NCBI GenBank assembly: GCA_014192065.1
Contig: BJHH01000001.1
Location: forward strand, 124,001-188,000
Direction of reading: 5' to 3'
Length of the DNA: 64,000 bases
Origin: Gemmatimonadota bacterium
GTDB taxonomy: Bacteria > Gemmatimonadota > Gemmatimonadetes > Gemmatimonadales > Gemmatimonadaceae
Shown here: positions 31,442-37,099 of the stretch, one piece after another
Layout of the letters: each line of letters starts with the position of its first letter
Numbering within the stretch: the first letter of the stretch is position 1
The notes under the pieces: model-generated
Database searches by the model: none
What the model saw: only the letters and a program-made list of their open reading frames with translations
Told to the model about the DNA's origin: nothing
Program-made: the position numbers and the translations under genes

Positions 31442-32296
31442 CTACAGGCCGAGGCGCTGTGGGTGGGTGTAGACATTCGCTGAACTGCCGCGCAACAGAC
31501 CGACCAGTGTGATGCCAGCCTCGTCGGCGAATCGGATCGCGAGGCCGGTTGGCCTGGAGACGGCCGCCAGCAACGGTGAGCCGGCGACCGCCACCTTTTG
31601 TACGAGTTCGTAGCTCGCGCGACTCGTCACCACGAAGAAACCACTCGCCGGGTTCGTGCCGACACGCGCGAGCGCACCGATGACCTTGTCGAGCGCGTTG
31701 TGCCGCCCGACGTCCTCTCTTACTACGCGGAGCTCGCCTGCTGCGCTGGCCCAGGCTGCGGCGTGTACGGCGTGCGTTGCATTATTGACTGGCTGCTGAG
31801 CGGCGAGTGCATCGCCGGCGCGGGTGATGGCCGTGGAAGTGAATGTCGCGAGCGAGTCCACGGTGCGCGGCGCGCGGATCGCGTGGTCGATGGCGTCGAT
31901 GCCACAGAGACCGCAGCCGGTGCGGCCCGCGAGCGCACGCGTGCGAGTGGCCACCCGCGCCTGTGCCTCAGGCGGGAGCTCCATCTGGATCTCCACCCCA
32001 CGGGCGTGACGGACGACCGCCAGGTTCACGATATCCGTCGCGCGGCCGGTGATTTCCTCCGAAATCGTGAACCCGATCGCGAGGTCCTCCAGATCGGCCG
32101 GCGTGCACATCATGACCACGTGCGGCTTACCACCATACACGAATGCGACCGGTACTTCTTCCGCTACCGCCCCGGAATCTGCGCGGGCCGCGGCGCCGTC
32201 GATCCGCGTGAATGGGCGCGGCTGCGAGGGAGGAAGGTTGCCGAGGTCGGTCACGCGCGGCGGACGATCATCACGATCACGCTGGCACCGCCGCAT
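31442..32296 (-). CDS. fdhD: Formate dehydrogenase sulfurtransferase FdhD
   Basis: The product is about 284 aa. EEVPVAFVYGGKPHVVMMCT, EDLAIGFTISE, the CxxC motif in GRTGCGLCGID, REDVGRHNALDKVIG, SRASYELVQKVAVAGSPLL and FADEAGITLVGLLRG are the FdhD blocks. FdhD passes sulfur from IscS to the molybdenum cofactor so that formate dehydrogenase becomes active. ATG 32296 overlaps the previous stop by 20 bp; ATG 32326 and GTG 32254 are alternatives. Confidence 0.93.
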   Translation of the reverse strand: MRRCQRDRDDRPPRVTDLGNLPPSQPRPFTRIDGAAARADSGAVAEEVPVAFVYGGKPHVVMMCTPADLEDLAIGFTISEEITGRATDIVNLAVVRHARGVEIQMELPPEAQARVATRTRALAGRTGCGLCGIDAIDHAIRAPRTVDSLATFTSTAITRAGDALAAQQPVNNATHAVHAAAWASAAGELRVVREDVGRHNALDKVIGALARVGTNPASGFFVVTSRASYELVQKVAVAGSPLLAAVSRPTGLAIRFADEAGITLVGLLRGSSANVYTHPQRLGL

Positions 32297-33200
32297 CGGC
32301 AGCCATCTGCGTGGCCGATCGGCCATTCTGCACGTGCTGCCAGCCGAACCGGCCCTTGATGCAGAGATTGCCGATCGTGATGTCGTTGTCGAGTGGGCTC
32401 GTGGCCTTCACGATCTCGCCATCCTGCACGTGCAACGTCAGGGTGCAGCCCACGCCGCAGAACGGGCAGACGGTATCGGTCGAGGTCTGCTTCGACTCAT
32501 TCCAATTGCCCTCCTGTCGCAGATCCCACTCGCGCTTGCTCATCAGCGCACCCGTGGGGCAGACGGCGATACAGTTGCCGCAATAGACGCAGGCCGACGT
32601 GGGGAGATCCACCGCGAACTCAGTCGAGATATGGGCGTGGAATCCGCGTCCGGCGACAGCGATGGCGAAGGTGTTCTGGTGGTCTTCGCCGCACGCCTCG
32701 ACACACTTGTAGCAGAGAATGCACTTCGCGTAGTCGCGAATGTAGAGGTCGTTGTCGACGAGTACCGGCTGCGCTACGGTCTCGCACGCACCGAACCGCT
32801 CTGGTTGCGCGCCATATTCGGTCATCATCTCGGCGAGACCGGGCGCGGTCGACAGGTCCGTGCTCGACGCGAGCATCTCCAGCACGAGCTTGCGCGTCAG
32901 ATTCACGCGCTCGCTCCGTGTCTGCACCACCATGCCGGGCTCGACCGTGCGCGAGCAGGCCGGCGCCAGCACGCGGGCGCCTTCGACCTCGACCACGCAG
33001 ACGCGACAGACATTCACGGGCGCAAGCGTTTCGAGCCAGCAGAGCGTCGGGATCTCGATGCCGAGCTTCTGGCAAGCGCCAAGGATCGTCGTGCCTTCAG
33101 GCACAGTGACCTGGTGGCCGTCCACGATGAGTTCAATCACCGGCTTCGGGATCGTCGAAGGCCGCGAGAGCTGGACGAGTTGCAGATGGGGGAAGGTCAT
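32277..33200 (-). CDS. Formate dehydrogenase Fe-S subunit (detached N-terminal part)
   Basis: The product is 307 aa. In order: a 2Fe-2S domain (PTLCWLETLAPVNVCRVC and APACS), a NuoG-like linker, two 4Fe-4S motifs (CILCYKCVEACGEDH, CVYCGNCIAVCPTGAL), and at the C-terminus the 4Fe-4S domain that normally begins the catalytic subunit (VCPFCGVGCTLTLHVQDGEI, GNLCIKGRFGWQHVQ). In FdsA-type enzymes all this is fused ahead of the molybdopterin domain. Here that domain is a separate gene at 35147-37099, and the break falls just after the Fe4S4 domain. The start overlaps the NuoEF-like stop by 4 bp. Confidence 0.92.
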   Translation of the reverse strand: MTFPHLQLVQLSRPSTIPKPVIELIVDGHQVTVPEGTTILGACQKLGIEIPTLCWLETLAPVNVCRVCVVEVEGARVLAPACSRTVEPGMVVQTRSERVNLTRKLVLEMLASSTDLSTAPGLAEMMTEYGAQPERFGACETVAQPVLVDNDLYIRDYAKCILCYKCVEACGEDHQNTFAIAVAGRGFHAHISTEFAVDLPTSACVYCGNCIAVCPTGALMSKREWDLRQEGNWNESKQTSTDTVCPFCGVGCTLTLHVQDGEIVKATSPLDNDITIGNLCIKGRFGWQHVQNGRSATQMAADAAVPA

Positions 33201-35143: not shown

Positions 35144-35146
35144 GAG

Positions 35147-37099
35147 CTATCTCACCGCCGCCAGCGTGGCCGTGTTGACCAACTCGACGCTCACGGCGCA
35201 CGCCTTGAATTCGGCGGTTCCTGATTTGGGATCCGAGGCATCGATGGTGAGGACGTTCGTCATCGCTTCATCCGGATAGTGCAGCGTCATGAACACCACC
35301 CCCGGGCGGAGCGAGCGATCCACCCGTGCTGGCACGACCAGCGTGCCACGGCGCGAGGTCACGCGTACCGTGTCGCTGCTGTGGATGCCGAGTCGCGTGG
35401 CATCCTCCGGCGACAGATCGAGCGTTTCGCCGCGGAAGAGCGGCGACTGATAGTTCGCGGTCTGCACGCCGGTGTTGTACGAGTCCAGATGCCGGCCGGT
35501 GGTAAGCGTGAACGGATACTGCGCGTCTGGTTTCTCCACCGGTCCTTCGTGCCGCACCACCGTGAACGGCGCCGCCATCCCACGCTCGGCACCCTGCTTC
35601 CAGAGCCGGTCGTGCAGGAAGGTCGCGCCGGGGTGATTCTCGTCGGGGCAGGGCCACTGCAAGCCCTGGTGCTCATCGAGGCGCGCGTAGCTCATTCCGC
35701 CGGCAAAGTGCGGCGCGACGGCGCGGAATTCGTTCCACACCGTTTCGGCGTCGGTGACGTTCAACTCCTTGCCGAGGCGCCTGGCGATCTCGTTCATGAT
35801 CCAGAGTTCGTCCTTCGCGCCGGCGGGCGGCTCAACGACCTTGCGGCAACGCTGGACGCGGCGCTCGCTGTTGGTCACCGTGCCGTCCGATTCGCACCAG
35901 CTCGCGGCCGCGGGCAGCAGCACATGCGCCATCTCGGCTGTTTTGGTCATGCAGATCTCCTGCACCACGAGGTGGTCGAGTCCCTCGAGCACCTGCGTCA
36001 CGTGGTGTGCGTCGGCGTCCGACTGCGCGGGATTCTCGCCGATCACGTAGAGTGCCGTGAGCTCTTTGCAGTCCATCGCCCGGATCATCTCGGTGAGGTT
36101 CAGTCCGATGTTGGGCTGCAGCGCGACGCCCCAATGCTTCTCGAAACGCTCGCGCACGGCGGGGTCGAGAATATCCTGGAAACCGGGGAGCTTGTTGGGG
36201 ATGGCGCCCATGTCGCCGCCCCCCTGCACGTTGTTCTGGCCGCGGAGCGGATTGAGCCCGCAGCCCCAGCGCCCCACGTGGCCCGTGAGGATGCCGAGGT
36301 TGATCAGCGCGAGGACGTTGTCGGCGGCATCGTGGTGCTCGGTGATGCCGAGGGTCCAGCAGATCATCGCCTTGTCGGACGTAGCGTAGGTGTGCGCGCA
36401 CTCGCGAATGACGTCCGCCGGGATTCCGGTTAGCTCTTCGCCGCGCTCGAGCGTGTACGATTCGACGCTCGCCGTGTACGTCTCGAAGCCTTCGCAGGCG
36501 TTGGCGACGAACGCCTTGTCGTAGAGGCCGGCGTGGATGATCTCGCGCGCCATCGTGTTCGAGAGGGCGATGTCGCTGCCGATGTGATTTCCCATCCAGA
36601 CATCGGCCCACTGGGCAGACTCCGTCCTGCGCGGGTCAATGACATAGAGCCGCGCGCCGTTCCGCACCCCCTTGAGGAGGTGGTGGAACCAGATCGGGTG
36701 TGCGGCGCGCGCGTTCGAGCCCCAGAGGAGGATGACATCGGTGTCCTCGACCTCGGCGTACGAACTCGTGCCGCCTCCCGCACCAAAAACCGTCGCCAGA
36801 CCGACGACGCTAGGTGCGTGTCACGTTCGATTACAACTGTCGATGTTGTGCGTGCCGAACACGGTCCGGGCGAGCTTCTGCGCAGCGAAGTTCACTTCGT
36901 TTGTGGACTTCGAGCAGGAGAAAATCCCTAGTGCATTCGGCCCGCGGGTCGCGATGTTGCGGCGGAATCCCTCGGCCGCGGCGTCAAGGGCAACATCCCA
37001 CGACGTCGGGGTGAGGACGCCGTTTACGCGGACCATCGGCTCGGTGATTCGAACGTATTCCCGTTTCTTGTTGCGACGGACGGTGTTGCCAGCCTGCAC
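35147..37099 (-). CDS. fdhA: Selenocysteine formate dehydrogenase, catalytic molybdopterin subunit
   Basis: Read through one in-frame TGA, the gene encodes 650 aa. The frame before it ends HNIDSCNRT, then TGA (36821-36823, residue 93), then HAPSVVGLATVFG. This is exactly where formate dehydrogenases have Cys or selenocysteine followed by the catalytic His. A SECIS-like hairpin follows the TGA. Later domains are intact: LLWGSNARAAHPIWFHHLLK, GGDMGAIPNKLPGFQDI, and the C-terminal dinucleotide-binding domain to AEFKACAVSVELV. GTG 37099 follows GAGGGGGAT-type Shine-Dalgarno sequence. The usual N-terminal Fe4S4 domain is absent and is encoded at 32277-33200. The enzyme oxidises formate to CO2, possibly reversibly. 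Confidence 0.92.
36791..36823 (-). promoter_or_regulatory. UGA selenocysteine codon and SECIS-like hairpin
   Basis: After the TGA (36823-36821) come 18 nt, then GGT. The stem CGTCGTC (36809-36803) pairs with GGCGACG (36797-36791), including one G-U pair, around the loop GGTCT. In E. coli fdhF the apical loop likewise carries GGUCU at the same distance from the UGA, so the spacing suits SelB recognition. Confidence 0.85.

What the first reader, a model, noticed from the sequence alone, without database searches (positions are those of the whole stretch)
32277..37099. Split selenocysteine formate dehydrogenase with its Fe-S third encoded two genes away
The catalytic gene (35147-37099) starts right after the point where the Fe4S4 domain normally ends. 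That domain, with the 2Fe-2S and 4Fe-4S clusters, forms the separate gene at 32277-33200. The halves total 957 aa, close to a fused FdsA-type subunit, and their broken ends join smoothly (GRFGWQHVQ and EYVRITEP). Order is catalytic half, NuoEF fusion, Fe-S half, fdhD, fhs. FdsA-type formate dehydrogenases are normally fused; the split with permuted order looks unusual. How electrons cross the break is a structural question.
Basis: partly seen in the sequence, partly recalled or inferred. Interest (0 to 1): 0.82.

Follow-up and report, generated by a model that had tools for sequence, protein, structure and literature searches.

The report
Formate dehydrogenase split across two genes
A bacterial enzyme that interconverts formate and CO2 has its active-site half and its first electron-wire half on two separate proteins; this split form is not an error of this genome but a widespread, apparently undescribed variant found in soil and freshwater bacteria of many phyla.

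Summary
On the minus strand lie a Sec-containing catalytic gene without its Fe4S4 domain (35147-37099), a NuoE-NuoF fusion (33197-35143) and an Fe-S gene that carries the missing Fe4S4 domain at its C-terminus (32277-33200), then fdhD and fhs. NCBIfam model Fdh-alpha is cut almost exactly: positions 1-50 match the Fe-S protein and 52-672 the catalytic protein. No fused FdhA exists elsewhere in the genome.

It is not a local oddity. Of 80 related loci, 66 have the order catalytic, EF, Fe-S, and none is fused; the hosts include Gemmatimonadota, Acidobacteriota, Planctomycetota, Chloroflexota and cultured Amycolatopsis. Each half forms one well-supported clade. In two Armatimonadota-related MAGs the catalytic gene is unlinked from EF/Fe-S, so the halves must meet as separate proteins.

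Filing it as a broken FdsA is wrong in detail: it lies outside the FdsA/MeFDH1 clade, uses Sec, and lacks the ligands of dimer cluster A4. All ligands of the direct chain (A1, A2, A3, A5, NuoF cluster, FMN site) are kept, so the only new protein boundary an electron crosses should be Mo to A1.

I found no paper describing this. New variant of a known kind; activity and complex formation remain untested.

The parts
35147..37099 (-). Catalytic subunit (650 aa): bis-MGD binding formate dehydrogenase core without the N-terminal Fe4S4 domain; U93-H94 and R286 match the catalytic Sec/Cys, His and Arg
   Evidence: AlphaFold model aligns to FdsA 305-939, Z 38.4
36821..36823 (-). In-frame UGA read as selenocysteine (aa 93, motif NRT-U-HAPSV)
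   Evidence: 52 relatives keep TGA here, 9 (Amycolatopsis/Lentzea) have Cys; selA, selB and tRNA-Sec present in the genome
36776..36823 (-). Bacterial SECIS-like hairpin right after the UGA, GGUCU apical loop as in E. coli fdhF
   Evidence: folding, conservation of GGTCT in nearly all Sec relatives, consensus hairpin with mostly one-sided pair-preserving changes
33197..35143 (-). NuoE-NuoF fusion (648 aa), NAD/FMN diaphorase subunit; candidate ligands C112, C117, C168, C172 (2Fe-2S) and C577, C580, C583, C626 (4Fe-4S)
32277..33200 (-). Fe-S subunit (307 aa) holding the NuoG/HoxU-like relay plus the Fe4S4 domain of the catalytic subunit; start overlaps the EF stop (ATGA)
32913..33140 (-). 2Fe-2S domain (equivalent of FdsA A5; C54, C65, C68, C82 invariant)
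32544..32732 (-). Two 4Fe-4S clusters (equivalents of A2, A3; C160/163/166/170 and C204/207/210/214 invariant)
32325..32483 (-). Displaced Molybdop_Fe4S4 domain (equivalent of A1; C245, C248, C252, C280 and K282 invariant in 44 relatives)
31442..32326 (-). fdhD, sulfurtransferase for the Mo/W cofactor, overlapping the Fe-S gene
   Evidence: TIGR00129 194.7 bits, cut-off 140.9
29694..31361 (-). fhs, formate-tetrahydrofolate ligase
   Evidence: PF01268 E=2e-243

Best explanation
This operon encodes a cytoplasmic, NAD-linked, selenocysteine formate dehydrogenase whose alpha subunit is permanently split at the junction between the Fe4S4 domain and the catalytic core. Shown by sequence: the catalytic protein keeps the Sec/His/Arg formate site; the Fe-S protein carries A1 (the cluster next to the metal), A2, A3 and A5; the EF protein carries the NuoF cluster, the FMN/NAD motifs and the NuoE cluster. 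Inferred: the two alpha fragments dock as their counterparts do in FdsA, so that electrons from formate go Mo/W -> A1 (across the protein boundary) -> A2 -> A3 -> A5 -> NuoF cluster -> FMN -> NAD+, or the reverse for CO2 reduction, and formate is passed to tetrahydrofolate by Fhs. FdhD sulfurates the cofactor. The split most likely arose once, by fission of a fused ancestor, and has been kept since.
For: Domain content and exact complementarity of the halves. Conserved order in 66 of 80 loci, no fused member among them. Both halves monophyletic with 100/100 support. Catalytic gene unlinked from EF/Fe-S in two Armatimonadota-related MAGs, with other genes flanking it, so the halves act in trans. 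Cluster ligands invariant over 44 relatives. Catalytic half folds to the FdsA core (Z 38.4) and MeFDH1 (Z 42.5). Sec decoding genes and SECIS-like hairpin. FdsA cluster roles from PMC7171172. Fission: rooted on NuoG, the split Fe-S clade nests among fused ones (90/84 and 92/88); the catalytic tree does not reject the same sister group (p-AU 0.77).
Against: No complex has been predicted or purified; the model of the Fe-S half is poor (pLDDT 60.6), so docking is by homology only. Support for the fission order is moderate. NAD rather than NADP, and the direction in the cell, are not shown. The genome lacks an acetyl-CoA synthase hit, so a full Wood-Ljungdahl role is unlikely here. The SECIS fold alone is only mildly better than shuffles (z -1.4).
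Confidence: 0.87

Rival explanations
1. Pseudogene, rearrangement or assembly artefact: a fused fdhA was broken and shuffled in this genome.
For: Ends of the halves join smoothly, as a recent break would leave them.
Against: The same order and the same break in 66 of 80 loci from many phyla including cultured actinomycetes; invariant cluster ligands and active site.
Confidence: 0.01
2. The split is the ancestral state: a catalytic subunit without Fe4S4 and a HoxU/NuoG-like Fe-S protein that carried the proximal cluster, before fusion gave FdsA and NuoG.
For: EF then Fe-S order resembles nuoE-nuoF-nuoG; the Fe-S half resembles HoxU, HydA and NuoG; the split clade is deep and unresolved in the catalytic tree; PMC10100899 proposes that FdsA arose by fusion.
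Against: Outside this clade the Fe4S4 domain is part of the catalytic chain in the relatives that I aligned, unfused FdhF included, so the split needs loss of that domain; with a NuoG root the split Fe-S clade nests among fused ones.
Confidence: 0.12
3. An electron-bifurcating formate dehydrogenase like HylCBA-FdhA, using NAD and ferredoxin together.
For: Separate Fe-S subunit; best NCBIfam hit of the Fe-S half is a group A6 FeFe hydrogenase N-terminus.
Against: EF shows no extra 2x4Fe-4S domain such as HylB is reported to have, and in HylCBA-FdhA the FdhA keeps its own clusters (PMC5736913).
Confidence: 0.06
4. The two proteins serve different partners: the Fe-S/EF pair is a general diaphorase and the catalytic protein works with another electron carrier.
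For: Catalytic gene and EF/Fe-S genes are unlinked in some genomes.
Against: All four such genomes still hold both parts and 66 loci keep them adjacent; the Fe-S protein carries the Fe4S4 domain that the catalytic protein lacks.
Confidence: 0.04

Closest known systems
MeFDH1 of Methylorubrum extorquens (7vw6, 8j83)
   Same: Same set of domains, NuoE-NuoF fusion as beta subunit, catalytic core aligns with Z 42.5
   Different: Alpha subunit fused, Cys not Sec, W enzyme; different clade of the catalytic tree
FdsABGD of Rhodobacter capsulatus / Cupriavidus necator (6tg9, 9wxb)
   Same: Direct electron chain A1-A2-A3-A5-NuoF cluster-FMN; FdhD beside it
   Different: Fused alpha, Cys, separate NuoE and NuoF, cluster A4 at the dimer interface whose ligands are absent here
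Fused Sec NAD-FDH of other Gemmatimonadota (L149-L151, L153)
   Same: Sec with GGTCT SECIS-like loop, no A4 ligands, EF upstream; sister of the Fe-S half in the tree (92/88)
   Different: Alpha fused, about 37-38% identical
FdhF of HDCR and E. coli FHL (7qv7, 1aa6)
   Same: Best sequence match of the catalytic half (545 bits, 7qv7); FdhF-like core
   Different: Keeps its own Fe4S4 domain; partners are HycB-like proteins, not EF plus Fe-S
HylCBA-FdhA of Clostridium acidurici (PMC5736913)
   Same: Separate Fe-S subunit plus NuoE/NuoF-like subunits with a Sec FdhA
   Different: FdhA keeps its own 2Fe-2S and 4Fe-4S sites; bifurcating
Formylmethanofuran dehydrogenase FwdB/FwdD
   Same: Precedent for a molybdoenzyme core split over two proteins (PMC7171172)
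   Different: Split at the C-terminal end, not at the Fe4S4 domain
Lost City Chloroflexi fdhA with nuoG, hoxF, hoxE (PMC7117926)
   Same: Possibly an earlier sighting of a similar gene set: fdhA next to separately annotated nuoG and hox genes
   Different: Described only as neighbours; the displaced Fe4S4 domain was not noted; I did not have its sequence

Membership tests
Metal-dependent formate dehydrogenase (MopB, TIGR01591 Fdh-alpha) | Match to the family model over cut-off | tested here: inconclusive
   Catalytic half 660.5 bits against cut-off 666.25 (positions 52-672); Fe-S half 44.3 bits (positions 1-50). Only the two together pass
Metal-dependent formate dehydrogenase (MopB, TIGR01591 Fdh-alpha) | Sec/Cys-His pair and Arg of the formate site | tested here: met
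   U93-H94 and R286 invariant
Metal-dependent formate dehydrogenase (MopB, TIGR01591 Fdh-alpha) | bis-MGD subunit also binds the proximal 4Fe-4S cluster (stated for all bacterial FDHs in PMC7171172) | tested here: not met
   Ligands lie on the other protein
Metal-dependent formate dehydrogenase (MopB, TIGR01591 Fdh-alpha) | Formate oxidation / CO2 reduction activity | not testable with these tools
   Needs purified protein
FdsA-type NAD-FDH | Fused alpha subunit | tested here: not met
   Two genes; no fused copy in the genome
FdsA-type NAD-FDH | Cluster A4 (His117, Cys121, Cys124, Cys130) | tested here: not met
   Motif absent in all split members and also in several fused clades
FdsA-type NAD-FDH | Places with FdsA/MeFDH1 in a tree | tested here: not met
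   Separate 100/100 clade on both halves
FdsA-type NAD-FDH | Complex-I-like NAD module | tested here: met
   NuoE+NuoF domains, ligands and FMN/NAD motifs
HylCBA-FdhA bifurcating FDH | FdhA with own clusters plus HylB with extra Fe-S domains | tested here: not met
   Absent in the catalytic and EF proteins
Selenoprotein | UGA with SECIS and Sec machinery | tested here: met
   selD not searched

The most novel reading that the evidence does not exclude
A molybdoenzyme class in which the cluster next to the metal lives on another protein, as the ancestral unfused form from which FdsA and complex I NuoG were later built, or as a switchable form in which the catalytic protein can swap electron-wire partners.
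Probability: 0.13. Interest if true: 0.75.

Novelty: new variant of a known kind. Interest (0 to 1): 0.5.

Why it matters
The cryo-EM paper on R. capsulatus FDH states that all bacterial FDHs share a bis-MGD subunit that also binds the proximal 4Fe-4S cluster (PMC7171172). This family predicts an exception and makes it testable whether Mo-to-cluster transfer works across a protein boundary. It gives a natural two-part alpha subunit for building CO2-reducing enzymes, a large group of Sec formate dehydrogenases outside the usual anaerobes, and it explains why annotation can miss them: the catalytic half alone falls just under the Fdh-alpha cut-off.

Tried and rejected
A second split type in Gemmatimonadota (Fe-S hits at about 40% identity in frames of 370-430 aa) proved to be fused Sec FDH whose frame merely stops at the Sec UGA. 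The quick catalytic tree rooted on the own C2 molybdoenzyme was set aside: the outgroup branch is 6.9 changes per column and the search missed a better tree. The Fe-S model was too poor for a fold search. Missing catalytic genes near L060 and L085 may be contig ends, so only L076 and L088 are counted as unlinked. Rfam gave no hit in 15000-45000. Nine literature searches found no description of the split; only openly licensed PMC papers were covered.

Full report
What is there. On the minus strand of the window, in transcription order, are a catalytic gene (37099-35147), a NuoE-NuoF fusion (35143-33197), an Fe-S gene (33200-32277), fdhD (32326-31442) and fhs (31361-29694). Three bases separate the first two genes, the EF stop and the Fe-S start overlap (ATGA), and fdhD overlaps the Fe-S gene, as expected of one operon. 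The catalytic frame is open for 650 aa if the TGA at 36821-36823 is read as Sec.

The split. Pfam finds only the Molybdopterin and Molydop_binding domains in the catalytic protein; the Molybdop_Fe4S4 domain sits at aa 240-292 of the Fe-S protein, after a 2Fe-2S and two 4Fe-4S sites. NCBIfam Fdh-alpha (672 positions) is matched at 52-672 by the catalytic protein and at 1-50 by the Fe-S protein. In R. capsulatus FdsA the halves cover residues 308-935 and 23-303. The genome has no fused FdhA: the other hits are a 28%-identity molybdoenzyme on C2 and an ORF on C3 that I read as NuoG.

Not an artefact. A scan of 84,980 species genomes returned more relatives than the 80 loci kept. Of the 80, 66 show catalytic-EF-FeS, 11 EF-FeS and 3 Fe-S alone, most of these by contig ends; none is fused or in another order. 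The Fe-S protein always ends shortly after the ...GRFG(W/F/Y) motif that closes the Fe4S4 domain. Record titles name Gemmatimonadota, Acidobacteria, Planctomycetota, Chloroflexi, Rokubacteria, Armatimonadetes, Eremiobacterota, a Deltaproteobacterium, and cultured Amycolatopsis and Lentzea. In the window's own phylum about 30 of 249 genomes have the split form (Fe-S hit at 60% identity or more; my count), while others have fused forms at 35-42% identity.

Halves in trans. For four loci without a neighbouring catalytic gene, the same genomes hold a split, Sec-containing catalytic gene elsewhere. In the two Armatimonadota-related MAGs (G266, G268) that gene is flanked by other genes on its contig and the EF/Fe-S pair is not preceded by it on its own contig. 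The other two cases may be contig ends. This argues that the halves are separate proteins that assemble.

Selenocysteine. The UGA is followed by a hairpin with a GGUCU apical loop, as in E. coli fdhF; the loop is kept in nearly all Sec relatives, and the stem shows mainly one-sided pair-preserving changes such as U-A/U-G and U-G/C-G. 52 relatives have TGA and 9 (actinomycetes) have Cys. The genome has selB, selA and a tRNA-Sec.

Electron path. In R. capsulatus FDH the direct chain is A1, A2, A3, A5, B6, FMN, and A4 (His117, Cys121, Cys124, Cys130) lies off the path at the dimer interface (PMC7171172). All ligands of A1 (C245, C248, C252, C280, with K282), A2/A3 and A5 are invariant over 44 Fe-S proteins; the A4 motif is absent from all split members and from several fused clades, but present in the FdsA/MeFDH1 group. 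EF keeps the NuoE and NuoF cysteines and FMN/NAD motifs. Hence the only transfer that becomes inter-protein relative to FdsA-type enzymes is metal to A1. This step is inferred from homology.

Structure. The model of the catalytic half (pLDDT 81) aligns to MeFDH1 340-981 (Z 42.5), FdhH 57-700 (Z 40.2) and FdsA 305-939 (Z 38.4). The Fe-S model (pLDDT 60.6) was not used. No complex could be predicted.

Family history. Split members form one clade on the Fe-S tree (100/100) and the catalytic tree (100/100), outside the FdsA/MeFDH1 clade. With NuoG as outgroup the split Fe-S clade is nested among fused ones and is sister to fused Sec FDHs of Gemmatimonadota (92/88); the catalytic data do not reject the same sister (p-AU 0.77). 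A single fission of a fused ancestor is therefore the likeliest history, with moderate support.

Literature. Reviews of FDHs and molybdoenzymes (PMC13397495, PMC10609526, PMC10100899) did not mention a split alpha subunit in the passages I searched. The Lost City Chloroflexi paper (PMC7117926) lists fdhA beside nuoG, hoxF and hoxE, which may be the same kind of gene set. HylCBA-FdhA (PMC5736913) has a separate Fe-S subunit, but its FdhA keeps its clusters. Absence of a description is limited to openly licensed PMC papers.

Verdict. New variant of a known kind; catalysis, cofactor choice, direction in the cell and complex formation are inferred.

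Noticed in passing
28504-29619 (-): Integron integrase (TIGR02249, 430.6 bits against cut-off 265) directly downstream of fhs, pointing the same way as the fdh operon.
   Followed up: partly
20330-20475, 21124-21269, 23910-24055; 24620-24655 and 27677-27712: Direct repeats of 146 nt (84-85% alike) and 36 nt (GCACCAACCCTTGGTTATGCGC core) near the integron integrase; could be attC sites of a cassette array.
   Followed up: partly
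27695-28298 (-): Small gene pair next to the integrase: BrnA-family antitoxin-like (47.9 bits, under its cut-off of 60) and an upstream BrnT-like ORF without a family hit.
   Followed up: partly
37247-40988 (-): Upstream genes on the same strand: threonine synthase, MoeB/MoeZ-like adenylyltransferase with rhodanese domain, MoaD/SAMP-like protein and PanB; the MoeZ/MoaD pair could serve Mo cofactor synthesis.
   Followed up: no
L034, L065, L080, L098 (catalytic genes): Sec-coding members whose SECIS loop reads GGGCTG instead of GGTCTG, the same change seen in most Cys members.
   Followed up: no
L149, L150, L151, L153: Fused Sec NAD-FDHs of other Gemmatimonadota also lack the A4 ligands, so loss of A4 is not tied to the split.
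   Followed up: yes
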